42,085 nucleotides of DNA, from contig JAADGM010000045.1 in the NCBI GenBank assembly GCA_013152375.1, forward strand, positions 1 through 42,085, written 5' to 3'. A program made the translations under genes and the position numbers. Source of the stretch: FCB group bacterium. Lineage in GTDB: Bacteria; Fidelibacterota; Marinisomatia; SCGC-AAA003-L08; JACNLC01. Below, in pieces: positions 1-42,052 of the stretch. The notes under the pieces are model-generated. The model was not told the DNA's origin. It searched no databases and saw only the letters and a program-made list of their open reading frames with translations. Each line of letters begins with the position of its first letter. Position 1 is the first letter of the stretch.

Positions 1-3000
1 GAACGCATAAGCGTCACTTCCAGCTGATTGCTCTGCGTCTGGACCGGGAAGATCAGGTCAACCCAAACAGAAGAGTTGAAATCGTCATATTCACAGAGTG
101 TACAATCGTTATCTTCGGTTGGGCATGTCTGCGGGTCTGTTTTAGGACAGAGTTGAATGGGATATTCTATATACCAAACAGCCTGACCCTGGGAATTGGT
201 GATCTGTACCCAGTTGACGTCCCAGTTAGGATCCGGTGGCGGGTCAGCCAGACCCGCACCGATAGCCGTGAGCTGTAAGGCGCCGTTATCGATATTTTCT
301 CCGTAAAAGTCCACGAGCGTTGCACTGACCGTGATCACCTGCGATCTGCAGGGATTGTTTGAATTCGGTCCCACGGAAAAATCGTGGAATACAGGCGAAG
401 CATTAATGAAGATCTGTCCCGGCTGGAAGGGCAGCATGGTCGGTTGGTCATTATGATTAGAGCGACTGTCTATCACCAGAAACTGACCATCTGCATAATA
501 GGTCTGGGCTTTGATAATTGTCAGATCAAAGATGGGATTTGAAGTATAATACAGAGCCGACCAGGCGATTCCCTGGAAATCGTTACCGGTGTCACCGCCA
601 CCCCAGGGATTGGGCATCCCTGTCTGGGCCTCGCCAATGACAAATGCCGGCTGTTGGGCAAGAGTCCATAAACCGGTATCGGTAGGTTCAGGGATGGGGG
701 GTGTGAGCGTATCAAAAAGACACATATAAACCAGGCTGTCAATTGGGGTAGTGCCATACATCACTAAATTACCTGCCATATAAGGGGTATTAGAATCAAA
801 CGGCAGTGCATAAGGATACAGGGTTAGCCACACATTGGTGGAATCTTTCACCGGGTTCGAATTGATATCCCATAAGGTTACGGACAGGGGAAGCTCATAA
901 TTCCCGCCACCGATGGGCGTTATTTCCTGTTGGGCAAAGTTGATCTCGCCAAAATACGGAGGTCCGGTGATAATGGTCACCATAATCGTCTGCGCCCAGC
1001 TCAACAGCGTAGTCTCATCCATGATCTCATCGTCAACGGCGTACAATTCCGCCCGGATATTGACACTCCCGGGATGCGTCCCTGAACTGAGTGTCGTGGA
1101 TGAGGTCCCGTTGCTGGATTCCACGATGAATTCCGTGAGACCTTCCGTTCCCGCCAAATGTGTGCCGGTAGGGGAGGGTTCGGTGATCACAAACTTAACT
1201 TTGTATGAATCCGATACCAGGTTACCGTTACCGTCGTGGATTGAAGCGCTGATCTCAGTGGTTTCGATGCCACCGCCGCCCTGCACCATGATCTCGTTGG
1301 GATAGGTGGGCTCCAACACGATATACGCGGCATCTTCAGAGGTTATATTGATGCGCAGCGTATCGCTTTTACCCTGATAAGTGCCGATGATGACCGCTAG
1401 TCCTGCATCGTTGGTCTGATAAAATGTAGATTGGGCAGTCAGAATACTATCGGCCGTATAGCTGTCAAAATAGCCCGGCGGCAGATCAAGAGCAGAGTAA
1501 TTTTTGTTGAAATAGGCAATTGGATCAATGGAGGCAAAAGGCACCAGCACTCCGGCTGAATCGATCATGCTCACGAACTCAACTATAGAGTTGGGTTCGG
1601 GGCCATACCCAAGAGAGTCAACGTAGGCAGCGTAAATTGGTGCCGAAACATCGCCGTCGGGCGTGGGAAGATTGATCATATCAGGATCCGTCCAGACTCT
1701 GAATTCCGCCACACATTGGGGACATTGGGGAATATCGTTGCTGAAAGAGATGGTCAGATATTCGGTCTGATTGTTATCCTGATCCTGAGTTGAGATCGTA
1801 AAATTGATATCTCTGATCTCCATATCGGTTACAATACCGGGAGAACTCTGGAAATACGCTTTGGCTACCCCTATGGAATCGGTCACAATACTGCTGCTGG
1901 GCTGGAGGAAGCAGTAATCCAGGTCTCCATTGTCCATATCAAAGTTTATCACAACTCCTTCGATGCCGCCTCCCGAGGCATTTTGGGCAATTGCAAACAG
2001 TGTATCTACGTAGGTGCTGTCATTGTTCACCACGGAAACGGTGCTGGAGGAGGCGTAAGCCACCAGATTGGCGACAACCGCCTGATTATTATCCTGAGCC
2101 GAAACATATAACAGATCTTCGTGGAGTATCACACTTTGGTCATCCGGGTCTGAAATAAATGCTCTGACGCGGTCAATTCCTTCGTGATCTACGGTATACC
2201 CAACTGTTGCAAAACCGGGATCATTACCCGAAGTATCCGACTCGGTCGTGTATACCAAGGCCGTTTCAAGGATGCCTTTGGGTCCGCTGCCGTCTTCGTT
2301 ATCGATGGCAAAGCGGATGGGAATATTTGAGACGCCCACACCGGCGGCATCTTTCGCAACCACCTGCAGGTTGCCCACATTCAAGATGTTCAGCGTGTCA
2401 ACTGAAGTTGTAAAATGCATTTCCGCCACATTGTTGACATTGCCGTTGGGACTAATGGTCAGTGATTCTACGCTGTTGTATTCTTCATTGACCGTAATTG
2501 TGAACTCGATCTGCGTATCTTCATTCAGCGGGACCTCACCGGGATTGGCGACGAAAACGCTTCGGGAAAGACCCGTGGAATCAGAAGTGACCATAGAATC
2601 TGTAAAATATCCCACCGGGCTGTCTTTGGTGTAATATACCGGAATACCGGAAAGAGCACCGCCGGCATGATCAGTGACTCGGGCATAGACAGTATCGGAA
2701 ACACCGACATTGGAGTTGTTCACCAGGAAAAAGGAGGTCTGCGACCACGTATTCAGATTGCCCACCAGGTCAATATTCGGCTCATTTTGGTTGCGCAGCA
2801 GCAGCACGGAATCGACTGACTGGACAATTTCGCCGTTCTGCATCACCTGTACCCTGATAATAGGAGAATTTTCCTGGTCCCAGGCAGAATAACTGATAGA
2901 ATAATCTGCAGTGGCAAATCCGTTTTCGTTGCTGATAATGAAGGTCGGGCTGATATTGCCGATGAGTTGGTCCTCATTGATGATTTGATTCAGTATGTTC

Positions 3001-4049
3001 AGCGGTACATTAGCCACGGGCATGGCATTTGCGTCCAGCAGCGTTACGCTGATAGTTGCATGGTAGGTTGAGTCCGGAACTGTGGGGTCAAATAAAAGTG
3101 TCATGGGATTGATACTCACGATGAGGTTTTCCACCTGTTCAATTGACCAGTCTTCCATGGAACGGAAAGATATCTTTTCGGATGCTGCATACTGCCCGTC
3201 TGCTCGCTGCAGAAAACCGTCGGCAAAATGATATTTACCCTGTGACTGTGCTACGATCCGGGCAAGCTCGTTCAGTTCGATAAAGGCCGTAACCCTGACG
3301 GTATCTGCGGCCTGCAGGGCCAACAGTTCCTGGCCAGTAGATACCAGCGTGTTCGTTGCTTTCCCAATATTATCCGTCTGCACAGTGGCGTTGCTGAAAA
3401 CGCCGACAACACTGTATTCCGGGTCAAACTCAAAATGTACATCGATATTTTCAATGGCCATATTGTTGTCGTCGCGGATGAAAGCGTTGAAAGTCACTGT
3501 GTAGAGAGAATCCAGATTATTATCATCAACCAGTATCAAACCATTGCTGCTGCTGGCGTCGGAAACAAGATTTACCGTGTTGACCTTGGTGGCCAGCGGC
3601 AGAACGATAATATCATCTGAAGCAGAAGCTGTATTATCATATTGATCACTATAACTTGCGGAGACCTGTAACGGCGCCCAGTCGTTGCAAGTTTCAAAAT
3701 TATCTGAATCGAGACATTCACTGGCATAACCGTCATCTTCAAAAACCGCTCTCATTTTACCATTGCTGTCCGTTTCTGTATCCAGAAGGTTCATTGACCC
3801 CTGAGGCCAGGTGAAAACTACCGTTCGCCCGCTTAGTGGAGCACCGTTTTCATCTGTTAGGGTTGCCGTGAAGGTGACCGTGGTAATGCCAAAATCGGCG
3901 TAAGTGATATCTTCGGAAGAATGATGACTTAGCGACAGATTGTAGTTATAAACCGGTGGTTTTGGTTTAGTTGTATCGCAGGACAATCCAAACAAGAGTA
4001 TAAACAAGCCAATGACAGCCCAGGATGTTAAGAAATATTTTTTCTTCAT
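1..4049 (-). CDS. Giant Ig-like (Big_1/invasin-type) repeat surface lipoprotein, 3' end outside window
   Basis: This frame has no stop codon from the ATG at 4049 down to base 1, giving at least 1349 residues; the C-terminus lies beyond the window. I translated it by hand. The N-terminus (MKKKYFLTSW then a hydrophobic stretch ending FGLSC, Cys24) looks like a loose lipoprotein signal. The rest is tandem beta-rich units marked by a recurring 'D..G.a...y' turn near residues 93, 225, 370, 487, 609, 722 and 880. Spacing is about 110-160 residues, as in bacterial Ig-like domain 1/invasin repeats. A cysteine cluster (four Cys) sits near residues 1300-1318 and a CPQC near 785. The gene starts 16 bases after the pilQ-like stop with an AAAGGATC ribosome site, so it is probably the last gene of the pilus operon. 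A cell-surface adhesive or pilus-linked role is inference; the family is clearer than the function. Confidence 0.85.
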   Translation of the reverse strand, partial: MKKKYFLTSWAVIGLFILLFGLSCDTTKPKPPVYNYNLSLSHHSSEDITYADFGITTVTFTATLTDENGAPLSGRTVVFTWPQGSMNLLDTETDSNGKMRAVFEDDGYASECLDSDNFETCNDWAPLQVSASYSDQYDNTASASDDIIVLPLATKVNTVNLVSDASSSNGLILVDDNNLDSLYTVTFNAFIRDDNNMAIENIDVHFEFDPEYSVVGVFSNATVQTDNIGKATNTLVSTGQELLALQAADTVRVTAFIELNELARIVAQSQGKYHFADGFLQRADGQYAASEKISFRSMEDWSIEQVENLIVSINPMTLLFDPTVPDSTYHATISVTLLDANAMPVANVPLNILNQIINEDQLIGNISPTFIISNENGFATADYSISYSAWDQENSPIIRVQVMQNGEIVQSVDSVLLLRNQNEPNIDLVGNLNTWSQTSFFLVNNSNVGVSDTVYARVTDHAGGALSGIPVYYTKDSPVGYFTDSMVTSDSTGLSRSVFVANPGEVPLNEDTQIEFTITVNEEYNSVESLTISPNGNVNNVAEMHFTTSVDTLNILNVGNLQVVAKDAAGVGVSNIPIRFAIDNEDGSGPKGILETALVYTTESDTSGNDPGFATVGYTVDHEGIDRVRAFISDPDDQSVILHEDLLYVSAQDNNQAVVANLVAYASSSTVSVVNNDSTYVDTLFAIAQNASGGGIEGVVINFDMDNGDLDYCFLQPSSSIVTDSIGVAKAYFQSSPGIVTDMEIRDINFTISTQDQDNNQTEYLTISFSNDIPQCPQCVAEFRVWTDPDMINLPTPDGDVSAPIYAAYVDSLGYGPEPNSIVEFVSMIDSAGVLVPFASIDPIAYFNKNYSALDLPPGYFDSYTADSILTAQSTFYQTNDAGLAVIIGTYQGKSDTLRINITSEDAAYIVLEPTYPNEIMVQGGGGIETTEISASIHDGNGNLVSDSYKVKFVITEPSPTGTHLAGTEGLTEFIVESSNGTSSTTLSSGTHPGSVNIRAELYAVDDEIMDETTLLSWAQTIMVTIITGPPYFGEINFAQQEITPIGGGNYELPLSVTLWDINSNPVKDSTNVWLTLYPYALPFDSNTPYMAGNLVMYGTTPIDSLVYMCLFDTLTPPIPEPTDTGLWTLAQQPAFVIGEAQTGMPNPWGGGDTGNDFQGIAWSALYYTSNPIFDLTIIKAQTYYADGQFLVIDSRSNHNDQPTMLPFQPGQIFINASPVFHDFSVGPNSNNPCRSQVITVSATLVDFYGENIDNGALQLTAIGAGLADPPPDPNWDVNWVQITNSQGQAVWYIEYPIQLCPKTDPQTCPTEDNDCTLCEYDDFNSSVWVDLIFPVQTQSNQLEVTLMR

Positions 4050-4065
4050 GATTTTGATCCTTTTG

Positions 4066-5475
4066 TTATTTATTGTCATCTGATTCAGATTCCGGCAGCA
4101 TTTTCTCAGCTTCTTCATGAAAGTCACGTTTTTCGATTCCGGTATCATTGTCGGCTACGATATGAGGAGTAACCTGAATGATCAGATCGGTTTTGTTTTC
4201 TTTCGAAATGATATGCGTAAACAATTTTGTGCCCAGCCAGGGAATTCGCCACAGAAGGGGGACCTTGTATTCTTCATTTATTTTATTGGCTCCGAGTAAA
4301 CCGGCAATGACAATGGATTCTCCGTCTCTGACACGCACGGTGGTTGTAGAGGTTCTTCTCTTCACCCATGGTATATTTTCATCGGGTCCGATAAAGTCAA
4401 AAATAGAACTGACTTCGGGTGTAATACTGGTGGTTATATAGCCGTCGCTGTTGACGATAGGCAGAATTTTAAGTTTAATTCCAACTTCTTCCCGCTGCAC
4501 CTGTACCTGCCCTCCTACGCCGCCTGCTGATAGAACGTAAGGTACAACGTCCACCATTTCAATTGTGGCAGCTTTCCCGTTTAGGGCAACAACCTGTGAA
4601 TTTGCGAGGAGTTCGGCTTTATTCTGTTTGAGGAGCAGGTCGAGTGTCACATCGAAGGCAGTGAGTTGACGACTTAAGCGAATCGGTTCGCCGGAGAGTC
4701 TCTGAAAATACATTTGATCCGGTTTTTCAGCTGTATTGAGAGGCGAAAAGGTTTCCTCGGCGAGGCCGGTCTGACCAGTTGCTACCGTCATGCCGGGAAC
4801 CAGTGACCCGGTTTCTTCCCCGTTCAAAGTAATGGGCGCTCCTGTTTCAGCAAAGATCTGGGTGAGTTTCGCCAGCCGGGCCCAGTCAATGCCCAGTTGC
4901 TGCTCGTCGCTGAGTGCCACTTCAATCAGACGGGCCTCCAGCATGATCTGTTGGGCCGGAACGTCAACCTCTTTGATGATGTCATATATTTCAGAGATTT
5001 TTTTCGGACTCGTACTGATCAGCAGACGGTTGCCGGTTTCATCCACCTCGATCTGTTCAGTAATATTCACTAGCAGACTTTTAACATCATTTGCATTTGC
5101 ATATTTAAGGGTGATGATATGCGAATCGATGCCCACTTCTTCATCCAGATTGCCTTTGCTGGCAACCAGGATAGAATTGCCAATGATCTCATAGCTCAAC
5201 CCGGCTGCTCGAACCACCAGATTAATCGCCTGGCTGATGGGGACATCCTTCATGTGTATGGTTAATTTGTCGTCGGCGTTGACCTTCGGTCCGGTAACAA
5301 TATTGTATCCGCTCTCTTCGGCAAGAATGGCAAGTACCATGGCGAGGTGTGTATCTTCAGCATTTATTGTGACCTTAGCCTGGTTATCCAACGCCGCATC
5401 TTTTTCAGAATGATTTGATGATATACCAAAAGAGACTACTAATAATAAAACAAAAATTAATACTAAGCTTTTCAT
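4066..5475 (-). CDS. pilQ: Type IV pilus outer-membrane secretin, PilQ-like
   Basis: The product is a secretin of about 469 residues, forming the outer-membrane channel through which the pilus passes. After a signal peptide (MKSLVLIFVLLLVVSFGISS) come an STN/N0 domain (about 35-105), an N1-type domain (about 118-185) and a C-terminal secretin domain. The secretin domain carries the VPLLWRIPWLGTKLF hallmark (normally VPLLGdIPvLGnLF) and ends in a TDLIIQVTPHIV strand. PilQ of proteobacteria is longer because of AMIN domains, which are absent here. I chose the ATG at 5475 rather than in-frame ATGs at 5493 or 5538: it is preceded by AAGGA at good spacing, begins a proper signal peptide, and avoids overlap with the upstream gene. 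It follows the PilM-N-O-P-like genes, as is usual for pilQ. Confidence 0.93.
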   Translation of the reverse strand: MKSLVLIFVLLLVVSFGISSNHSEKDAALDNQAKVTINAEDTHLAMVLAILAEESGYNIVTGPKVNADDKLTIHMKDVPISQAINLVVRAAGLSYEIIGNSILVASKGNLDEEVGIDSHIITLKYANANDVKSLLVNITEQIEVDETGNRLLISTSPKKISEIYDIIKEVDVPAQQIMLEARLIEVALSDEQQLGIDWARLAKLTQIFAETGAPITLNGEETGSLVPGMTVATGQTGLAEETFSPLNTAEKPDQMYFQRLSGEPIRLSRQLTAFDVTLDLLLKQNKAELLANSQVVALNGKAATIEMVDVVPYVLSAGGVGGQVQVQREEVGIKLKILPIVNSDGYITTSITPEVSSIFDFIGPDENIPWVKRRTSTTTVRVRDGESIVIAGLLGANKINEEYKVPLLWRIPWLGTKLFTHIISKENKTDLIIQVTPHIVADNDTGIEKRDFHEEAEKMLPESESDDNK

Positions 5476-5512
5476 TTCCTTTTCCTTATTCATTCGGCAG
5501 TTTGTGTTAAAG

Positions 5513-6013
5513 TTACTTTTTTTCCAATTTCGAATCAATATCGGGCAGCAGAGAATAGGTTTTCAGATCACCGTCTTTTGAGAACGAGACGCTGGTATCC
5601 GTAATTGCTGTGACAAGTCCTCCGGCAACTGAATCTCCCACGGTAACATGGAATATCCTGTTTTTGTAATGGGCGATAGCATGATGCTGCTTTCCGGTAA
5701 CCCCGGCAGAAAAATGAACTTTACTGCCGCCGTAACCCCGCAGTTCACCGGCATCAAAAATGATGACCCTCGAAAGGTCCGTGGGATATTTTTTAAGTTT
5801 GAACTGATAATTCTGACGCTCAACAAAATTTTTCTCCAGGTCATTGATGCTTTTGGTCAGGGCGGAGTCCGTACCGATGGTTTCATTTTGATAGGTCTCC
5901 ACGAAGGCTGTTTTCTCCACGTCCATTTTATAGAGCAGATACCCTGAAATGATGTAGATGATAACCGCCACCGCTACCAGGGCATCCCAGATAAATTTTT
6001 CTTTTACATTCAT
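5513..6013 (-). CDS. PilP/GspC-like inner-membrane pilus assembly protein
   Basis: This 166-residue protein has a short cytoplasmic start, one membrane segment (about residues 11-28), a coiled linker and a small C-terminal beta domain. The segment VGDSVAGGLVTAITDTSVSF followed by a KDGDLKTYSL strand matches the HR-type domain of PilP and GspC, which links the inner-membrane PilN/O complex to the secretin. Proteobacterial PilP is usually a lipoprotein; here it is anchored by a transmembrane helix, closer to GspC. It lies 3 bases after the PilO-like gene and just before the secretin, exactly where pilP is expected. The assignment rests on the HR motif and position, not on strong overall similarity. 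Confidence 0.75.
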   Translation of the reverse strand: MNVKEKFIWDALVAVAVIIYIISGYLLYKMDVEKTAFVETYQNETIGTDSALTKSINDLEKNFVERQNYQFKLKKYPTDLSRVIIFDAGELRGYGGSKVHFSAGVTGKQHHAIAHYKNRIFHVTVGDSVAGGLVTAITDTSVSFSKDGDLKTYSLLPDIDSKLEKK

Positions 6014-6016
6014 AAG

Positions 6017-6580
6017 TTATCCAGTAATTTTTTTCAGTATAATTGTTGATAATTCCATTTCCACATTCAGATTGAGCAGCTGGTCCCGGGAACGCATGGT
6101 CGAGATCCTCTCGATACCGTTCTTCATGGTGAAATTCTGTATTGTTATGATATGATCGTTCTTTTCAAGTTCAGTGATGAATTTCCCGAATTTCTCATAA
6201 GTACACTGTATTTCAAGCTCGTAAGGAATTTGCACATTTTTCCGGGTTTCAAGGATGTCCTGCGGTTCGAGATGGAGTGTCTTGATCTCAAGCTTTTCGA
6301 GAATATCGGTAAGCTCATTCAGAAATTCCATGGAAGTTATTTCGAACTTATTCGTCCGCCTGTCATCCTGATTCGTGAGATTGGTTTCAAATATCTTGTA
6401 AACCCTGTCAAGCCTCTGAGATAAAATCTGGGATGTAATTAACTTTTCATTTGATTTGGTTTGCTGCTCTTCCAGTTTCTCAAGCCGTGCGGGTTTGGGA
6501 GCATAATTGAAGGAACGGGCAAACCAGAACCCGAAGGAAAAAACGATGATGCCAACCAGCAGGAATATATTTCTTTTCAT
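6017..6580 (-). CDS. pilO: PilO-like type IV pilus alignment subcomplex protein
   Basis: The product has 187 residues: an N-terminal membrane helix (about 5-22), a coiled-coil stretch rich in K/E/Q (about 30-60), and a periplasmic ferredoxin-like domain ending in beta strands (VEMELSTIILKK). This is the PilO layout, and PilO pairs with PilN to align the pilus machine. Its ATG overlaps the stop of the PilN-like gene by 4 bases (ATGA), implying translational coupling and equimolar production. Sequence conservation in this family is low, so the call leans on topology, size and gene order. Confidence 0.82.
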   Translation of the reverse strand: MKRNIFLLVGIIVFSFGFWFARSFNYAPKPARLEKLEEQQTKSNEKLITSQILSQRLDRVYKIFETNLTNQDDRRTNKFEITSMEFLNELTDILEKLEIKTLHLEPQDILETRKNVQIPYELEIQCTYEKFGKFITELEKNDHIITIQNFTMKNGIERISTMRSRDQLLNLNVEMELSTIILKKITG

Positions 6581-7218
6581 GATTTTTTGGCCTCCATCTT
6601 GGCTTTTAATTCCTTACGGGATCTCCGTCTTTCCGGTTTGTGCTCCCGGGCTTCAATCTTGAATTGAACGATTTCCTGTCCCCGGGTCTTATGATGATCA
6701 GAACTCACAAAACGAACAAACTTAAAACTGTCTGAAAAATCCGGATCACCTTCGAGACGCTTGATGAATTTATCGATAATGGCAAATTCTTTTTCATCCG
6801 TGAATGTATGAGAGATTCCTGATATGACCAGTTTGCCGTTCCCTCTGGCTTCATCATAGGCCAATTGTGTGATGGCCATATCTTCGGGCGTGATCTTGGC
6901 AATGGATTTCAGGATTCGGGTCCAGATGATGCGTTTATTTTCCATGTCATATAGAGAGATGACGTCTTCTTTCGAAAGGTCCACCTCCGCATTTTCCTTC
7001 AAGGAAGCGATTTGATAATTCACATCTTCTATCCGGTTTTCACGATCCTGTATCAATTGATCCATTTCCTGATTGATACTATGAATGGTATATCCAAGGA
7101 AACCAAAAACCAGTATCATGATGGCGAACCCGACCCAGCGCCAGCGCTCTTTTCTCATCTCCATAAGCTGAGCCCGGTTGACGGTCTGATTCAGATTTAT
7201 AAGTATGTATCTTTCCAT
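6577..7218 (-). CDS. pilN: PilN-like type IV pilus alignment subcomplex protein
   Basis: This 213-residue protein opens with the short cytoplasmic INLNQ motif (residues 7-11) that in PilN inserts into PilM; the usual form is INLLP. A membrane segment (about 29-46), a coiled coil and a periplasmic alpha/beta domain follow (VISGISHTFTDEKE and on). The C-terminus is an unusual strongly basic tail (residues about 193-213, rich in K and R), not typical of PilN. It begins directly after the pilM stop and overlaps pilO by 4 bases. Confidence 0.85.
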   Translation of the reverse strand: MERYILINLNQTVNRAQLMEMRKERWRWVGFAIMILVFGFLGYTIHSINQEMDQLIQDRENRIEDVNYQIASLKENAEVDLSKEDVISLYDMENKRIIWTRILKSIAKITPEDMAITQLAYDEARGNGKLVISGISHTFTDEKEFAIIDKFIKRLEGDPDFSDSFKFVRFVSSDHHKTRGQEIVQFKIEAREHKPERRRSRKELKAKMEAKKS

Positions 7219-8277
7219 TTATTTTTTTTCCAATCCTCTCAATGCGCATCCAAAGGCAATTGCGTATTGTGCCGGATTGTCCATCTCCGCCACATTTTCA
7301 ATTTTCTTAAAGGGATTTAGCAGTTCAACTTTAATATTGAGGTTTTCGCTGATGAAATCCTGTAATCCCGGCAGCGGAGCGGAACCTCCCGAAAGATAAA
7401 TCTTGTTGAAATGGGATTGTCCGCTGTTTTTCATATAAAACCGCAGTGATTTACGAACTTCCTCAACAAGCTTGGTGTATATGGTTTTTTCGGCAACCTG
7501 CACTCTGAATTTGCCGTCATCTCCCTCTTCGGAGGGGGCTTCTCCCACTGCTGCCAGTCCCTGGGCGATTTTTATCTTCTCGGCCTCATCATACTGGACT
7601 GTGTTGGCTTTTGCAGTGTATTTGGTGAATTCATGCCCGGCGATACTGAGTTCACGGGTGAAGAATCGTTGATTCATACCCCAGACTACCAGCGTGGTCG
7701 TCTGATTACCGATGTCTAAAAGGACATCCGCCCCTTCGGGTGTTTTCCCCTCAGCGTTCGTATAGGCATTCACCAGCGCGATGGGGTCTGCATCGAAGAT
7801 ACCGGTTTTGAACCCCGCTTCTTTCATGGTTTCATTGTGATTATCGATGATGTTTTTCGTTGAGGCGACCAACAGGACAATGATCTTATCCAATTCTTTA
7901 GGATCACTGCCCAATGTATGGTAGTCAAGCACAGGCTGGGTGCCGTCCATTGGAATATGCTTCTTGGCTTCAAATTCCAGGGATGATGCCAGCTCTTCAG
8001 CGGCCATATCCAGGGTTTTAACTTCGCGGATACTGATATTGGATCCGGAGATGGAAGATACGGCATTCTTGATCCGCTTGGGATTGATCTTCAAATCCCG
8101 GCAGAGTTCCTGAATGGCAGCTGTCCATTGTGATTTCCCGATGGATTCGGGATTGAATTTCGAGAGATCATCTATTACCGACTTTCTCCCGAAATTCTGC
8201 AGTGCTAGCCCTCCGGAAGATTTCTCAATCTGAACGATTTTAACCTCCGAAAAACCAAAATCTATACCTATTGCCAT
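7219..8277 (-). CDS. pilM: Type IV pilus assembly ATPase-fold protein PilM
   Basis: This 352-residue protein of the actin/FtsA fold is cytoplasmic and binds the N-terminus of PilN. It opens with the phosphate-1 motif GIDFGFSEVKIVQ (residues 3-15). A second nucleotide loop, DVLLDIGNQTTTLVV, sits near residue 185, and an adenosine motif, IYLSGGSAPLPGLQDF, near residue 294. All are standard for PilM. The length matches the family. The ATG is 2 bases from the stop of the large PilX-like gene, so the assembly genes are co-transcribed with the minor pilins. Confidence 0.94.
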   Translation of the reverse strand: MAIGIDFGFSEVKIVQIEKSSGGLALQNFGRKSVIDDLSKFNPESIGKSQWTAAIQELCRDLKINPKRIKNAVSSISGSNISIREVKTLDMAAEELASSLEFEAKKHIPMDGTQPVLDYHTLGSDPKELDKIIVLLVASTKNIIDNHNETMKEAGFKTGIFDADPIALVNAYTNAEGKTPEGADVLLDIGNQTTTLVVWGMNQRFFTRELSIAGHEFTKYTAKANTVQYDEAEKIKIAQGLAAVGEAPSEEGDDGKFRVQVAEKTIYTKLVEEVRKSLRFYMKNSGQSHFNKIYLSGGSAPLPGLQDFISENLNIKVELLNPFKKIENVAEMDNPAQYAIAFGCALRGLEKK

Positions 8278-8279
8278 AT

Positions 8280-10211
8280 TTAATCTATTGCTCCATATTG
8301 TGCCATTGAGACACTTTTTTCATCATTTTCAAATTCTATCGAAGGAAAGAAAGGCGGAGGACCGCACATCAGATTTTTATCATAATGATAGTCTTTATCC
8401 ATGCCGATGTCGCCGGTGTTATAGGGTCCGGGATTGTTCCGCATCATATATCCCCGATACTTTTGTACGATACCGCCCCAGACGGTTACGTAGCCTCTGT
8501 AATCTGTATTACCGGTCTGCCCTCCAAAGCGACTGATCCCCCGGCCGTCTGCCCAGGGCGGTGTGGTTTCCTGACCGTTGATGGTGTTCTGCCAGTACTG
8601 CATGGCAAAGGACTCATCAAAGGCAATGATAGCCGCGTCGATGACAATATCGTCAAACCAATGGTGGTTGCGGGCTCCGTTCTCCCGCGTATTTGCAATG
8701 ATCACATTCGCTCCGGATACCAGTCCGAGAATATTATCTGAACCGTCCTTGCAGTTTTCATCCGGCTGCACTAAACTAAGATCTCCGGTAGGGACATCCG
8801 AATTGATCAGGTTATCTGTTATCCAGATATTGCACCATACGGTATCCACAGGCGGAGCTCCATAGGTAACCGAAGGAGTCGGCCAGGCGTGCCGCCGGTA
8901 AGTGACGTACTCATCCGTTACAACCGTGTAACGCCCGGTGTAGGTGCCCTTGACTCTCACCGGGCCGCCTTTTACATAGATGACAGAGGGATGTGTGTAA
9001 TAGACCTGTTCATCTTTGATCAGAGCAGAAGCATCCGGCTCTCCCGTAGTGGCATCCAGTACTTTAAAGTCAAAGTGCGTCAGCCCATGTTGAGCAGTAA
9101 CGTAAGGGTCTATGGGATTTTCCCCCACGTAAGTATCCCCGTTGAAGGTGACAGTTTTGGCCTGATAATAGAATAACGAATCAAGGTACGGCTCACAGGT
9201 TCTTAAATCATAGGGAGGCATGGTATCAAAACAGTGGCTCTGCCAGGAACCTGAATAACCTGTCCACTCCAGGGATGTAGGCAGGGCAAAGAGCCAGGGG
9301 AGCCCGCCATTGGGTTTCAGGTGAGGCGGTTTCAGATACCACCATTGTTTCACCCGGAAGCCGAATTCGTTAAAGTCCAGTTCGGTCATTATGAGGGTGT
9401 CTCGATTCATAATCCCGTCATAGCGTAATTTGGCTTTAGCATCGTAAATGAAATTGGCAGCATTCTTTGTTAGTTGATACCCGGACGGCGGTAATTTTAC
9501 CGGAGGCATTGACATTGTATCCGGATCTCCCTGAAAGACCTGGTTAGGATTGCAGCTGCCCATATCGATGCTCTGACCGTAGGTGATCCATACGGTATTG
9601 GTAAAGGTAGGGCAGCCATAATCACTCATGACCATGGTGCCGTTGGACTGGATGTTTCCGCCGCCCATCGAATCACCGGCACCGAAAGTCACATTTCGGC
9701 GCTCGCCGCTGCTGAAGACGAAGGGGCCTCCCCCCGCCTTTTCACTATCTGTGAGATACATGTAGGCGGCCAGGGACTTCTGATCGAAGGTCATTCCCGC
9801 TTTACGAGTCACCGGGACAATATCGCCCTTTTGGTTTTTTACATAAGCCACCCCTTCAGAACTCGCCAGGAGCTGTACGGTGCTGATGCTGCTGATATCC
9901 TGTTTGAGCTCGACATTTCGATAGATCCCCTGTGACCGGTAGCGTTTTTCCCAGGGGACGGTATCGAGCTGTCTGCCTTCAAGTACGGTATCAACTGCCG
10001 TAAAATGAGTGCTGATCAGGGTTTTAAAGGCTTTATCCGCCAATCCCGATTCGGCGTTGTATTTCGCCTTTTGAACGGCAATCCGATGGTTAAGGATGTA
10101 GCGTTTGTTGTGTGCCCATTTGAAGAAGGAGAATACCGTAATGGAACTTAAAATTAGAAAGAACATGGTAATGGGTAAGATCACACCCGGTTGTGATTTA
10201 TAGTTTATCAT
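8280..10211 (-). CDS. Very large PilX-like minor pilin-type protein
   Basis: The product is about 643 residues. The N-terminus (QPGVILPITMFFLILSS, then an amphipathic helix containing NAESGLADKAFK) matches the PilX N-terminal pattern, in which a hydrophobic helix lacking the strict GFTLxE motif anchors a minor pilin. The remaining roughly 580 residues form a Tyr/Trp/Gly/Pro-rich ectodomain with no recognised domain; normal PilX is about 150-200 residues. I chose the ATG at 10211 (AGGAGA 7 bases upstream) over an in-frame ATG at 10283, which would overlap the preceding gene. The large ectodomain may sit at the pilus tip, like PilY1-dependent tip complexes; that is inference. Confidence 0.75.
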   Translation of the reverse strand: MINYKSQPGVILPITMFFLILSSITVFSFFKWAHNKRYILNHRIAVQKAKYNAESGLADKAFKTLISTHFTAVDTVLEGRQLDTVPWEKRYRSQGIYRNVELKQDISSISTVQLLASSEGVAYVKNQKGDIVPVTRKAGMTFDQKSLAAYMYLTDSEKAGGGPFVFSSGERRNVTFGAGDSMGGGNIQSNGTMVMSDYGCPTFTNTVWITYGQSIDMGSCNPNQVFQGDPDTMSMPPVKLPPSGYQLTKNAANFIYDAKAKLRYDGIMNRDTLIMTELDFNEFGFRVKQWWYLKPPHLKPNGGLPWLFALPTSLEWTGYSGSWQSHCFDTMPPYDLRTCEPYLDSLFYYQAKTVTFNGDTYVGENPIDPYVTAQHGLTHFDFKVLDATTGEPDASALIKDEQVYYTHPSVIYVKGGPVRVKGTYTGRYTVVTDEYVTYRRHAWPTPSVTYGAPPVDTVWCNIWITDNLINSDVPTGDLSLVQPDENCKDGSDNILGLVSGANVIIANTRENGARNHHWFDDIVIDAAIIAFDESFAMQYWQNTINGQETTPPWADGRGISRFGGQTGNTDYRGYVTVWGGIVQKYRGYMMRNNPGPYNTGDIGMDKDYHYDKNLMCGPPPFFPSIEFENDEKSVSMAQYGAID

Positions 10212-10221
10212 GGTGTATCTC

Positions 10222-10806
10222 CTATAAGTAATCGTTAGCTGCAAAAACTTTTCGCCTGAATTTAAATACCTTTTTAACCACACTGCTTTTCCGCTGGACT
10301 TTCAACCTTACGGCCATAGAAAGGACATAAGTTGAACGCCTGATCTTACTGAGTGCCGGGGAATAATTCCCGATACTTGCAGGTAAGGGTTCACACCAGA
10401 AATCCTGCAGTTCGTATACGGTCGTAGTGCTTTTGAAAGACTTAAAAAGCCAGATGGGTTCACCATTCAGCAGCACTCCCTTTTCCTCGTCGGCGAAAAA
10501 GACGGGATGGCTGTTAACAATTTGCCCCGTTTCAGTGCTGCGGTGCGGAATTTTCAAATCGATTACCGAATAACCGTTGCGGGAAGTCAGTGTGACCTCG
10601 GTTGCGAGCATCAGGGAGTCAGCAATCATATCCAGCACAGTATTTCCGTAATGATCGGCATCCTCAAAATACGTCTGCTGCCGAAAATAGGCTTGAATTT
10701 CAGAAAACGTGTAAGTCAGTCCGAGCGCAATTGCCGCAAAAATGATCAATGAGGTGATAGCTTCAAGCAAGGTAAATCCGTTTGGTCTTGTCAGACTGAG
10801 GTCCAT
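10222..10806 (-). CDS. PilW-like minor prepilin
   Basis: This 194-residue prepilin has a short leader (MDLSLTRPNG) followed by the processing site G/FTLLEA, with Glu at +5 and a hydrophobic helix to about residue 32. The prepilin peptidase is expected to cleave after the Gly. The ectodomain has strands compatible with PilW (a 'VLLNGEPIWLFKSF' segment and a basic C-terminus). It sits between the PilV-like and PilX-like genes, matching the conserved pilV-pilW-pilX minor pilin order, which supports the name more than the sequence does. Confidence 0.82.
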   Translation of the reverse strand: MDLSLTRPNGFTLLEAITSLIIFAAIALGLTYTFSEIQAYFRQQTYFEDADHYGNTVLDMIADSLMLATEVTLTSRNGYSVIDLKIPHRSTETGQIVNSHPVFFADEEKGVLLNGEPIWLFKSFKSTTTVYELQDFWCEPLPASIGNYSPALSKIRRSTYVLSMAVRLKVQRKSSVVKKVFKFRRKVFAANDYL

Positions 10807-10819
10807 GTCAGCATCTTAT

Positions 10820-11278
10820 CTATTGCGGAAAAACCAGTTGATAACAAAAAAAATCCATTGATCGCTTTCGCGCGTCGCCAAAGGAATAGTCGGTCCATTC
10901 TATCCAGGTTTTGAGACTGTAATACTGAGCGGTCGTACCCGTCTTACTGATCTTCTTAATTTTACGAAACAGATAGCCTTTCACGAGATGTCCCTCATCC
11001 TGATCAAACAGAATAACTTCATCACCGATACCGCCCACCTGAGGCGGCAGGCTGGAGGGATACCCCGCAATACGCGCTTTCCAGTAATTCGTGTAATTGG
11101 TCAGCTCCTGAAAGGCTCTTTCCTTCAGATTTATGGAATTTAATTCAGCTTTTGCATAGGCGATACTTTTCATGAGACCAAAAGATGCAGCTGCGATAAT
11201 GATCAGGGCCAGTATCACCTCCATCAGAGTAAACCCCTGGCCGGAATGAGTATGGGTATCTGCTGAGTTAATATCCAT
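10820..11278 (-). CDS. PilV-like minor prepilin
   Basis: This 152-residue prepilin has a longish polar leader (MDINSADTHTHSGQG) before the cleavage site G/FTLMEV, with Glu at +5 and a helix of small hydrophobic residues after it. The ectodomain ends in a WIEWTDYSF and MDFFCYQLVF pair of strands. It is the first of three consecutive minor-pilin-like genes, located after the PilT-like ATPase and 13 bases before the PilW-like gene. Minor pilins of this set prime pilus assembly in the inner membrane. The name is by gene order. Confidence 0.8.
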   Translation of the reverse strand: MDINSADTHTHSGQGFTLMEVILALIIIAAASFGLMKSIAYAKAELNSINLKERAFQELTNYTNYWKARIAGYPSSLPPQVGGIGDEVILFDQDEGHLVKGYLFRKIKKISKTGTTAQYYSLKTWIEWTDYSFGDARKRSMDFFCYQLVFPQ

Positions 11279-11302
11279 TATGCTGAAGACAGTACACGAT
11301 GT

Positions 11303-12361
11303 TTAAAAGATACCTTTCCTGAAATTTTCAGGATTATCTGCAATTTGAGCGGCATCTTCCCGTGCAATTATCCCCTGCATCAGAAGTCTTTGCAAGTCAC
11401 TGTCAAGTGTCTGCATACCCTCCGTTCCCCCTGATTGAAGCACCGTGGGGATCTGGTAGATCTTATCCTCACGAATGAGGTTCCGGACCGCAGTGGTGGC
11501 AACCAGTATTTCGGCTGCAGGTACGCGCCCCGTACGATCTTTGGTCGGCAGGAGTTTCTGGGCGATAATCGCCTGTAAACTCTCTGACAGCATAGAGCGG
11601 ATCTGTGATTTCTGGGATGCAGGGAATACATCTATAATTCTGTCGATAGCTTTTGCTGAACTGGCTGTGTGCAGGGTGGACAACACCAAATGACCTGTTT
11701 CCGCCGCAGTAAGGGCGAGTTGGATCGTCTGTAAGTCTCTCATCTCACCCACCAGTATCACATCTGGGTCCTCACGCAATGCAGACCTGAGGGCGTTCGT
11801 AAAACTTAGTGTATTTGCGCCCAGTTCCCGCTGATTAATGAGGGAATTCCTCGATCTGTGATAATACTCCACAGGATCTTCAATAGTGATAATATGACAG
11901 GATCTTAGGTCATTGATATGGTCAATCATTGCCGCCAGCGTCGTGGATTTTCCGCAACCCGTCGGTCCGGTCAGCAGGACCAGACCCCGGTTCAGCATCG
12001 CCAGATTGTTGATGAAGGGGGGGATACCGAGCTCTTCAGTTGAGAGGATCTCCGACGGGATTGTCCGGAAAACGCCCGCAACCCCGTTCAGCTGATGAAA
12101 GAAGTTTACCCGAAACCGACCGTAACCCTCAAGGGCCGTAGAAAAGTCGATTTCGAGATTTTCCTTGAACATCTCGCGCTGATGGTGATCCATGACCTCT
12201 TCCAAAACACCGTTCATGGTCTCTTCATCTACTTCCGGCAGCTGCAGTTTTTGCATCTCACCGTTTATTCTGACCATGGGGATTGACCCCACGCTCAAAT
12301 GCAGGTCTGATGCGCCGCTGTCAACAGAATATTTAAGTAATTCTTGAACGGGAATGGACAT
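11303..12361 (-). CDS. pilT: Type IV pilus retraction ATPase PilT-like
   Basis: This 352-residue hexameric secretion ATPase powers pilus retraction. It shows a Walker A GPTGCGKST (132-140), an Asp box (IITIEDPVEY), a Walker B (DPDVILVGEMRD), a His box (HLVLSTLHT) and the C-terminal AVRNLIRE, a near-perfect form of the PilT-specific AIRNLIRE motif that separates PilT from PilB. Length matches PilT (about 345). The ATG overlaps the pilin stop by one base (TAATG), implying coupled translation. No PilB extension ATPase is in the window, so it must be encoded elsewhere. Confidence 0.95.
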   Translation of the reverse strand: MSIPVQELLKYSVDSGASDLHLSVGSIPMVRINGEMQKLQLPEVDEETMNGVLEEVMDHHQREMFKENLEIDFSTALEGYGRFRVNFFHQLNGVAGVFRTIPSEILSTEELGIPPFINNLAMLNRGLVLLTGPTGCGKSTTLAAMIDHINDLRSCHIITIEDPVEYYHRSRNSLINQRELGANTLSFTNALRSALREDPDVILVGEMRDLQTIQLALTAAETGHLVLSTLHTASSAKAIDRIIDVFPASQKSQIRSMLSESLQAIIAQKLLPTKDRTGRVPAAEILVATTAVRNLIREDKIYQIPTVLQSGGTEGMQTLDSDLQRLLMQGIIAREDAAQIADNPENFRKGIF

Positions 12362-40078: not shown

Positions 40079-40115
40079 TACCCTTATTTTTCACTGTAAA
40101 GGATCGGAGGGAATA

Positions 40116-41870
40116 ATGTCTGTTTCACACCGCGCTCTCATTTTCATTTTAACCCTGCTGGCAACCTGCTCTTTCAGCACTGCCCAGGAGTTTTCCCCGG
40201 GACCCTACGGCACGGGTTATACCGATATTGCCGGCCCTTTCTTTCTGCCGGATCTAAATGCAACCATCAGCGGAGACGTGAACTTTGATGACGTGCTCAA
40301 TGTCCAGGATATCATCATTGTAGTGGGTGCCGTCCTGGGTATCAATGAGTTGAATGATGAGCAATTCCAAGAGGCTGACACCAATGGCGACGGGGTCATC
40401 GATATTCTGGATATCGTCTCTTTTGTGAATATGGTGCTGTACCCTCAACCGCCCGGCTGGGATTTTGAAACAAACTGGAACGGCGAAGAGAGTTATATTT
40501 TCATCCACTATTCTGCAATGGTGGGCACTTCACCCGCTTTATGGGCCTCCAATACCAAACAGGAATTGCTGGACAATTCACCCTTGAATGTACATTATTT
40601 TTTCCTCTCAGATAATTTCACCTATATGGCGGATGTGGCAAATATGCAGAGTGAATTTGACGCCATCCTCGAAAACTTCTCTCCCGGGTTGCAGGAGCAC
40701 TGGCGGACACATCTGCACTTCGTTCCCGTGCGATCCAACAACCTGGGGAACTGGATCAGCGATACGATTTACGGAAAATATGCTTTTGGCATCGACCGCT
40801 TCCAGCGCATCCGGGAAGTCGGTTACCTGGGGAATCCTAACGGTTTTACCGGGACTTATCTCAGCTACCTGGCGCATGAGGCCATCCAATACAATCACCA
40901 ATGGGACCTGTTCGGGACGGTTGACCCGGCGATGACGGAGATTGCCCTGTTTGACAGTGTCCTTTACAGCGGAGGCTGGTCACCAACGATCACCTCGAAT
41001 ATCATATTGCCGGACGATGCTGTCTTATCGACCTACACCAAGATGGAGGTGGAAGCCTATATGGCCTGTGCCGGCTATCTGGACGACAACTGCGATGACT
41101 ACGACCGCATTGCCAAGCTAAAAGTCTGCGGAGCAGATGGTTCGGACTGTAAAGAAATTGCCCGCTGGATCACACCCTTCGACCGGCAGCCCCATTTTCT
41201 CACGGATATTACGCCGTATCTTGCTGCCCTGAGACCCGGTGGAGAGAGGCAGTTCAAATTCACAATTTCCGGCTGGCCGAACAGCATAATTTTCATCAAG
41301 CTGAGGTTTTTTGCAGATGAAACCCCTGAAGAGACTCCCTTCGAGATCATCCCGCTGTGGAATCAAACCCGCAGTTTTAACGAAGATTATAATAATGCTT
41401 TCGATCCGATTATCTTTCAGGTGCCTGAGAATGCCGTTAAAGTACAGTTTGTCTCTTATATAACTGGGCACGGGATGGCCTGTGATGTGGGTAACTGTGC
41501 CGAGTTCTGTAATTCGGGACATCTATTCGAAATCAACGGGGGCGTGGGCACTTTTCAGAAAACACACCCCGAAGCCGGAACCCTGACCCACTGTATGGAT
41601 CTGGAGCAAATCGCTGCCGGTGTCATTCCGAACCAATGGGGTACCTGGGGCTATGGCCGGGCCGGTTGGTGCCCGGGCTGGGAAGTAGAACCTTTTATTC
41701 AGGATATTTCGGAGTGGATCTTTCCCGGAGATGATAATGTGATCACCTATGAGGGCTGTTACATCCAAAATGAAAGCCAGGGTTGCACGGATTGGCCCGC
41801 TCCCATCGACTGCGGTGGCGGCTACGCTGCCGAGATCAATATGTCCTCTTACATCATTATCTGGTACTAG
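40116..41870 (+). CDS. Secreted dockerin-bearing peptide-N-glycosidase F-like protein
   Basis: This 584-residue secreted protein has a Sec signal peptide (to about residue 23). Next is a dockerin type I-like module with two calcium loops: DVNFDDVLNVQD (54-65) and DTNGDGVIDILD (88-99). A middle region follows (about 115-320). The C-terminal half has the PNGase F C-terminal-domain pattern: GHG (about 451) followed by NCAEFC, 'HLFEINGG' and 'NQWGTWGYGRAGWCPGW' (about 506). PNGase F cleaves whole N-glycans from glycoprotein Asn. I cannot confirm the catalytic Asp/Glu of the N-terminal PNGase domain, so activity is inferred. The ATG follows GGAGGG. It is its own unit after rnc. Many Cys residues suggest disulfides and extracellular life. 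Confidence 0.83.
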   Translation: MSVSHRALIFILTLLATCSFSTAQEFSPGPYGTGYTDIAGPFFLPDLNATISGDVNFDDVLNVQDIIIVVGAVLGINELNDEQFQEADTNGDGVIDILDIVSFVNMVLYPQPPGWDFETNWNGEESYIFIHYSAMVGTSPALWASNTKQELLDNSPLNVHYFFLSDNFTYMADVANMQSEFDAILENFSPGLQEHWRTHLHFVPVRSNNLGNWISDTIYGKYAFGIDRFQRIREVGYLGNPNGFTGTYLSYLAHEAIQYNHQWDLFGTVDPAMTEIALFDSVLYSGGWSPTITSNIILPDDAVLSTYTKMEVEAYMACAGYLDDNCDDYDRIAKLKVCGADGSDCKEIARWITPFDRQPHFLTDITPYLAALRPGGERQFKFTISGWPNSIIFIKLRFFADETPEETPFEIIPLWNQTRSFNEDYNNAFDPIIFQVPENAVKVQFVSYITGHGMACDVGNCAEFCNSGHLFEINGGVGTFQKTHPEAGTLTHCMDLEQIAAGVIPNQWGTWGYGRAGWCPGWEVEPFIQDISEWIFPGDDNVITYEGCYIQNESQGCTDWPAPIDCGGGYAAEINMSSYIIIWY

Positions 41871-41886
41871 ACGATCGAGAATAAAA

Positions 41887-42052
41887 AACCGTTAAAACGG
41901 TTATGGGGTAAATCCCTTTCCTGCACCCACACGATTAAAATCGTGGGTTGATTGTAGGTGTATGAATCGATAAATTGACAGAAGCCGGGTAGCCCACAGT
42001 TTCAACTGTGGGTATAGGAATGGGGAAATATGCGGTAACCGTTTCAACGGTT
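41887..42052. repeat. Cluster of four REP-like palindromes
   Basis: Four short perfect or near-perfect palindromes lie in 166 bases: AACCGTT/AACGGTT (41887-41902); ACCCAC..GAT/ATCGTGGGT with a 2-base bulge (41925-41948); CCCACAGTT/AACTGTGGG (41993-42012); and AACCGTT/AACGGTT again (42037-42052). The order is A-B-B'-A', and loops are 2-4 bases. They sit directly upstream of a probable RAYT transposase start, matching the REP/BIME arrangement linked to that transposase family. Confidence 0.75.

What the first reader, a model, noticed from the sequence alone, without database searches (positions are those of the whole stretch)
40116..41870. Secreted PNGase F-like protein with a dockerin module
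PNGase F-type C-terminal motifs combined with paired dockerin calcium loops is an unusual architecture. It points to extracellular deglycosylation, possibly docked on a cohesin-bearing surface or complex, and so to use of glycoproteins from eukaryotes or archaea.
Basis: partly seen in the sequence, partly recalled or inferred. Interest (0 to 1): 0.6.

Follow-up and report, generated by a model that had tools for sequence, protein, structure and literature searches.

The report
Surface-docking N-glycan-removing enzyme in Marinimicrobia
This gene encodes a secreted bacterial enzyme that probably strips sugar chains from other organisms' glycoproteins; its closest solved relative is a fish egg enzyme, and a docking module set inside one of its domains probably plugs it into a cell-surface, protease-rich enzyme complex.

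Summary
ORF 40116-41870 (584 aa, from a Candidatus Neomarinimicrobiota genome) matches Pfam N-glycanase_C (4e-18) and Dockerin_1 (2.5e-5), both above cut-off. The nearest solved protein is not PNGase F (1.5e-8) but zebrafish Ngly2, the acid PNGase (6e-44). Both catalytic acids are present (D330, E463) and invariant in 34 aligned sequences. Between dockerin and catalytic domain lies a redox-dead thioredoxin-like domain, as in Ngly2 but without Ngly2's protease-associated insert. Conserved N-terminal residues precede the dockerin, and one homologue lacks it at that spot, so the dockerin looks inserted into the thioredoxin-like domain. Six calcium-ligand aspartates are invariant in 20 orthologues. 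The genome holds 94 dockerins and several cohesins, some with type IX surface-sorting tails. Eight of 25 annotated C-terminal-dockerin proteins are peptidases. No STT3 oligosaccharyltransferase, GH92 or GH20 was found. Best reading: a secreted PNGase docked on a cell-surface, peptidase-rich cohesin-dockerin system, exposing foreign glycoproteins to proteolysis. Catalysis and fold family are well supported. Dockerin nesting is probable. Cohesin binding is inferred. It is a new variant of a known kind; a similar complex is reported in Cloacimonadota.

The parts
40116..41870 (+). Gene for the 584-aa secreted dockerin-bearing, Ngly2-type PNGase; last gene on the contig, downstream of fabF-like and RNase III-like genes (named by eye)
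40106..40111 (+). Shine-Dalgarno-like GGAGGG
   Evidence: read directly from sequence
40116..40184 (+). Probable signal peptide, residues 1-23 (hydrophobic core, likely cleavage after ...FSTA/Q); LATC does not fit a lipobox
   Evidence: read directly; predicted helix 2-20; no signal-peptide predictor available
40185..40265 (+). First piece of the thioredoxin-like domain, residues 24-50 (GPYG..YxDIAGPFxLxDLN), conserved upstream of the dockerin
   Evidence: alignment A1, G29 and P30 invariant even in the dockerin-less homologue; strand 43-45 in the model
40272..40439 (+). Dockerin type I, residues 53-108
   Evidence: Pfam Dockerin_1; 17 of 21 aligned members hit Dockerin_1; fold match to dockerin 2ccl_B, TM 0.89 by target length
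40275..40310 (+). Calcium loop 1, residues 54-65
   Evidence: D54, D58, D65 20/20 invariant
40377..40412 (+). Calcium loop 2, residues 88-99
   Evidence: D88, D92, D99 20/20 and N90 19/20
40452..40793 (+). Main piece of the thioredoxin/peroxiredoxin-like domain, residues 113-226
   Evidence: Foldseek to Ngly2 9lwg and peroxiredoxins; weak collinear match to Ngly2 chain 124-200
40860..40913 (+). [quoted passage not shown]
   Evidence: model; Ngly2 architecture
40932..41867 (+). PNGase catalytic domain, two jelly-roll halves, residues 273-584
   Evidence: (C half)
41103..41105 (+). D330, equivalent of PNGase F D60 and Ngly2 D421
   Evidence: invariant
41274..41276 (+). W387, equivalent of PNGase F W120 and Ngly2 W480 (W480A nearly inactive)
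41502..41504 (+). E463, equivalent of PNGase F E206 and Ngly2 E555
   Evidence: invariant

Best explanation
It is a secreted peptide:N-glycanase of the Ngly2 type within the PNGase F superfamily. Shown by sequence or prediction: the catalytic Asp/Glu pair and the two-jelly-roll fold, a redox-dead peroxiredoxin-like domain before it, and a calcium-loop dockerin set into that domain near its N-terminus. Inferred: it is exported to the cell surface, its dockerin binds cohesins carried by type-IX-sorted surface proteins, and there it cleaves the Asn-GlcNAc bond of N-glycoproteins of foreign origin (eukaryotes or archaea). The neighbouring dockerin-tagged peptidases could then attack the bared polypeptide.
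For: PNGase: Pfam 3.9e-18; zebrafish Ngly2 6.3e-44 and PNGase F 1.5e-8, profile 5e-59 and 3e-17; whole-length fold match to 9lwg with TM 0.66/0.64. D330 and E463 are invariant in 34 aligned sequences; both equivalents were shown essential in Ngly2 (D421A, E555A; PMC12753239). W387 equals the Ngly2 W480 needed for activity. Thioredoxin-like domain: Foldseek to Ngly2, Bcp1, AhpC and ScoI; no cysteine at all in residues 113-226. Nested dockerin: the conserved block at residues 24-50 sits before it, and L025 has both flanking blocks close together without a dockerin. Dockerin under constraint: six Asp 20/20. Docking system: 94 dockerins; nine cohesin matches, seven over cut-off; cohesin plus sorting tail in L059:1-1539 and L060, and a cohesin with FlgD_ig and a sub-threshold sorting tail in L061. 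Peptidase partners: S8, trypsin, C25, M1, M14 with dockerins. No STT3 found.
Against: Active-site loops are low-confidence in the model (455-463 and 502-522 under pLDDT 50), so the catalytic geometry is not shown. The PNGase F E118 equivalent is S385, although Ngly2 lacks it too. Cohesins match solved cohesins only weakly (0.005 to 0.06). No cohesin-dockerin pairing was tested. Foldseek does not print residue ranges, so pairing of the strands on either side of the dockerin is inferred. Profile comparison of the thioredoxin-like part with peroxiredoxins was not significant. No N-glycan gene cluster surrounds the gene, and neighbours differ between relatives. The genome is 89% complete, so missing GH92, GH20 and STT3 could be gaps.
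Confidence: 0.55

Rival explanations
1. The enzyme part is as described, but the dockerin does not dock on cohesins. It is a calcium-stabilised structural insert or a dimerisation/spacer element; Ngly2 dimerises through this same thioredoxin-like domain.
For: The dockerin sits inside a domain rather than at the C-terminus, unlike 26 of 39 sampled dockerin ORFs of the genome. Ngly2 uses its Tx-like domain for dimerisation. Cohesin candidates are few (nine, seven over cut-off) against 94 dockerins and match solved cohesins weakly.
Against: Calcium ligands and the position-10/11 residues (VQ and IL) are of the genome-wide dockerin type. The dockerin folds like cellulosomal ones. Cohesin genes are present, three copies in one protein.
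Confidence: 0.3
2. The PNGase fold is kept but acts on something other than N-glycans: another glycosylamide or amide bond, or binding only.
For: Active-site loops are low-confidence. No N-glycan-degrading partners GH92 or GH20 were found. The Ngly2 His422 position is Arg.
Against: D330, E463, H452 and the aromatic-D-positive motif (YDR) are kept, as in active PNGases. W387 is kept in all dockerin-bearing members. Ngly2 and PNGase F, on either side of it, are both active PNGases.
Confidence: 0.12
3. It trims the bacterium's own glycoproteins (maturation or recycling) rather than foreign ones.
For: PNGase-superfamily proteins are widespread in the phylum (66 of 245 genomes), so a housekeeping role is conceivable.
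Against: No STT3-type oligosaccharyltransferase was found in the genome. The protein is secreted and bears a dockerin. It is absent from the one genome of the same genus searched (G179, 77% complete).
Confidence: 0.05

Closest known systems
Zebrafish Ngly2 (acid PNGase, PDB 9lwg; PMC12753239)
   Same: Best solved relative by sequence and fold; thioredoxin-like domain plus linker helix plus PNGase domain; catalytic D and E, W480 and H546 equivalents (D330, E463, W387, H452)
   Different: Ngly2 has a protease-associated domain inserted in its Tx-like domain, which is absent here; here a dockerin is present instead, at a different place; His422 is Arg331; Ngly2 is lysosomal and acid-active
PNGase F (Elizabethkingia meningoseptica, 1pnf/3pms)
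   Same: Two-jelly-roll catalytic fold; D60, R61, W120 and E206 equivalents; secreted bacterial enzyme
   Different: About 21-23% identity in the fold alignment; PNGase F has no Tx-like domain or dockerin; W59 is Y329, E118 is S385
Deinococcus radiodurans PNGaseDr (WP_010889584.1, L137)
   Same: Falls in the same 100/100-supported clade with the dockerin-bearing family (long branches); 29% identity over residues 226-581
   Different: No dockerin found; modular organisation like the oyster enzyme, with possible binding modules over the active site (PMC12381499); lipoprotein-like N-terminus
Cellulosome-like dockerin/cohesin complex of Cloacimonadota Ca. Stygibacter (PMC8542988)
   Same: Bacterial genome with C-terminal-dockerin peptidases (S8/S53, C25) and glycosidases and a cohesin scaffoldin with a surface-attachment CTD
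   Different: One 3,755-aa scaffoldin with tandem cohesins and CBM2/CBM3 domains there; here several smaller cohesin proteins; no PNGase is named in the passages read
Clostridial cellulosomal dockerins (for example 2ccl_B, 4dh2_B)
   Same: Two calcium loops, same fold (TM 0.89 to 2ccl_B)
   Different: Usually appended to plant-cell-wall enzymes (own knowledge); here inside a redox-dead thioredoxin-like domain of a PNGase

Membership tests
PNGase F superfamily (PF09112/PF09113) | N-glycanase_C profile above cut-off | tested here: met
   66 bits against 25
PNGase F superfamily (PF09112/PF09113) | N-glycanase_N profile above cut-off | tested here: not met
   13 against 22.4 bits; 3 of 21 family members match at E up to 0.1, best 6e-5; the fold match spans both halves
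PNGase F superfamily (PF09112/PF09113) | Catalytic Asp60 and Glu206 | tested here: met
   D330 and E463; invariant in 34 aligned sequences
PNGase F superfamily (PF09112/PF09113) | Hydrolysis of the Asn-GlcNAc bond | not testable with these tools
   Needs expression and assay
Ngly2 (acid PNGase) | Redox-dead thioredoxin-like domain plus linker helix before the PNGase domain | tested here: met
   Foldseek whole-length TM 0.66/0.64 to 9lwg; N-terminal part alone still matches 9lwg, 1.3e-4
Ngly2 (acid PNGase) | Protease-associated domain inserted in the Tx-like domain | tested here: not met
   Alignment passes from Ngly2 chain residue 200 to 349 while the query moves from 220 to 223; no room for a PA domain
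Ngly2 (acid PNGase) | Active-site His422 and His546 | tested here: inconclusive
   H452 matches His546; the His422 position is R331, as in PNGase F
Ngly2 (acid PNGase) | Activity restricted to acid pH, homodimer | not testable with these tools
   Biochemistry needed
Dockerin type I | Two EF-like calcium loops, profile above cut-off | tested here: met
   24.8 against 22.9 bits; six Asp invariant in 20; fold match
Dockerin type I | Calcium-dependent binding to a cohesin | not testable with these tools
   Cohesin genes present; binding not tested
Cellulosome-like complex | Scaffold with several cohesins | tested here: inconclusive
   L059:1596-3569 has three cohesin places plus a dockerin; weak match to solved cohesins
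Cellulosome-like complex | Cohesin protein with a surface-sorting tail | tested here: met
   Cohesin plus Por_Secre_tail in L059:1-1539 (above cut-off) and L060:1-7068 (26.3 against 27 bits, FlgD_ig above cut-off); anchoring itself not shown

The most novel reading that the evidence does not exclude
A dockerin nested inside a dead peroxiredoxin-like fold plugs an Ngly2-type PNGase into a cell-surface, cohesin-based, peptidase-rich complex of Marinimicrobia: a cellulosome-like machine for eating glycoproteins, in which deglycosylation and proteolysis are coupled on one scaffold.
Probability: 0.35. Interest if true: 0.65.

Novelty: new variant of a known kind. Interest (0 to 1): 0.5.

Why it matters
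Bacterial relatives of the newly identified animal acid PNGase are barely described; this one, its orthologues and the Deinococcus enzyme give a bacterial family to compare pH optimum and substrate range with. A PNGase with an inserted dockerin among docking peptidases would suggest that cohesin-dockerin machines serve protein and glycoprotein breakdown in uncultured marine bacteria, not only plant-fibre breakdown. It also offers a testable enzyme for glycobiology.

Tried and rejected
Profile-profile comparison of the (dockerin-excised) thioredoxin-like part with peroxiredoxins of the same genomes gave nothing, and Pfam found no convincing family there; the assignment rests on structure. Searching the PDB with the excised domain gave only a weak Ngly2 match. 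Operon context was rejected as a clue: the fabF-like and RNase III-like genes upstream are unrelated, and none of the nine relative loci compared shared neighbours with the window beyond weak dehydrogenase matches. Plasmid records held only the D. radiodurans relative. PubMed Central full text had no paper with both Marinimicrobia and dockerin, or PNGase F and dockerin; that library is partial. L025, the dockerin-less homologue, may be a stray contig in its MAG (its TSP3-repeat lipoprotein style looks archaeal to me); it is used only as a no-insert comparator.

Full report
The observation. Window 40116-41870 is one complete gene of 584 codons plus stop, with a Shine-Dalgarno-like GGAGGG. Pfam gives N-glycanase_C at 3.9e-18 (residues 425-580) and Dockerin_1 at 2.5e-5 (residues 53-102), both above their curated cut-offs. 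The genome is 2.6 Mb in 150 contigs, 89% complete.

What the enzyme part is. By sequence the best solved relative is zebrafish Ngly2 (9lwg, 6.3e-44), far ahead of PNGase F (1.5e-8). With a family profile the values are 5e-59 and 3e-17. The predicted structure (pTM 0.71) matches 9lwg over its length (TM 0.66/0.64) and then PNGase F and other PNGases. Ngly2 is the fish acid PNGase, described in 2025: a thioredoxin-like domain (58-185 and 319-343) with an inserted protease-associated domain (186-318), a linker helix, and a PNGase domain whose D421 and E555 are both essential (PMC12753239). D330 and E463 are the equivalents here and are invariant in 34 aligned sequences, which include the other PNGase lineages of the phylum. 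W387 equals the Ngly2 W480, and H452 equals His546 (numbering offset worked out from the alignment). Arg331 is as in PNGase F, and E118 of PNGase F is Ser385 (Ngly2 lacks this Glu too). The active-site loops are low-confidence in the model, so geometry is not shown.

What the front half is. Residues 113-226 match thioredoxin-fold proteins in structure (Ngly2, Bcp1, AhpC, ScoI) though not significantly in sequence. They contain no cysteine, so the domain is redox-dead, as in Ngly2. The protease-associated domain of Ngly2 is missing. The dockerin folds like clostridial dockerins (2ccl_B, TM 0.89 by target). It is not at the end of the mature protein: residues 24-50 before it (GPYG..YxDIAGPFxLxDLN) are more conserved than the dockerin itself (0.71 against 0.58), and G29-P30 persist in L025, where the two flanking blocks lie close together without a dockerin. 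The simplest reading is that the dockerin interrupts the first hairpin of the thioredoxin-like domain (strands 43-45 and 114-116 flank it). I could not inspect coordinates, so this is inferred.

How general it is. Twenty aligned sequences from several families of the phylum carry the same order; 17 of 21 aligned members hit Dockerin_1. Six calcium-ligand Asp are 20/20 invariant, so the dockerin is kept by selection. The tree joins them with L025 and the Deinococcus enzyme at 100/100, apart from the other PNGase types, with a warning about long branches. Of ten other PNGase-type proteins scanned in the phylum, none had a dockerin match and five had a Por_Secre_tail match: a possible alternative route to the same place.

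The docking system. The genome has 94 Dockerin_1 matches at E 1e-3. Of 39 dockerin ORFs sampled, 26 carry it at the extreme C-terminus and 12 inside the protein, several of them ahead of a sorting tail. Cohesin matches number nine, seven over cut-off directly or with their neighbours. L059:1-1539 has dockerin, cohesin and a sorting tail; L060:1-7068 has cohesin and a sorting-tail match just under its cut-off; L061:269-1054 is a 262-aa cohesin with FlgD_ig and a weak tail match; L059:1596-3569 has three cohesin places and a C-terminal dockerin. Matches to solved cohesins are weak. Among 25 C-terminal-dockerin proteins annotated, eight are peptidases: trypsin-like three, S8 two, C25, M1, M14. 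Others include a peptidylarginine-deiminase family protein, an alpha-amylase and a GH53. The stretches were chosen for their dockerin or cohesin hits, so the proportion is not a genome-wide estimate. A comparable complex with C-terminal-dockerin peptidases is reported in Cloacimonadota (PMC8542988).

Mechanism. Shown by sequence or prediction: fold family, catalytic pair, dockerin. Inferred: export by a signal peptide and then to the surface, calcium-dependent docking on cohesins, and deglycosylation of foreign N-glycoproteins to open them to the neighbouring peptidases. No STT3 was found, so self-substrates are unlikely. No GH92 or GH20 was found and only one modest GH38-type match, so the glycan itself is probably not the main prize. 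The genome is incomplete, which limits these absences.

Verdict. The protein is an Ngly2-type PNGase without the PA domain and with an inserted dockerin: a new variant of a known kind. It looks like a PNGase by every test available, but activity and docking are untested.

Noticed in passing
window 41887-42052: Downstream of the gene lie nested palindromes (AACCGTTAAAACGGTT, CACACGATTAAAATCGTGGG, CCCACAGTTTCAACTGTGGG, AACCGTTTCAACGGTT), REP/BIME-like; one identical 20-mer occurs on another contig, C150.
   Followed up: partly
L059:1596-3569 and L059:1-1539 (genome contig C11): Adjacent genes for a three-cohesin, Big_2-rich protein with a C-terminal dockerin and a dockerin-cohesin protein with a type IX sorting tail: candidate scaffold and anchor.
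   Followed up: partly
L061:269-1054 (C127), with similar 250-295-aa frames in relatives: Small single-cohesin protein with a possible surface-sorting tail; frames of similar size with a cohesin match recur in many genomes of the order, a possible general anchor.
   Followed up: no
L065, L066, L069, L070, L071 (own genome): Clusters of C-terminal-dockerin peptidases (S8, trypsin, gingipain C25, M1, M14) and a peptidylarginine-deiminase family protein.
   Followed up: partly
L117, L136 and other peroxiredoxin loci: Several AhpC-TSA matches read through a single TGA, suggesting selenocysteine peroxiredoxins in this family.
   Followed up: no
L138 (G172 contig C59) 2789-5437: An 882-aa Ngly2-type PNGase with TSP3 repeats, lipoprotein-like N-terminus and no dockerin; the contig may belong to another organism, perhaps an archaeon.
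   Followed up: partly
window 3-12361, minus strand: A secretin, a T2SSE ATPase and a large Big_1/invasin-like protein in a row: a type II secretion or pilus-like cluster.
   Followed up: no
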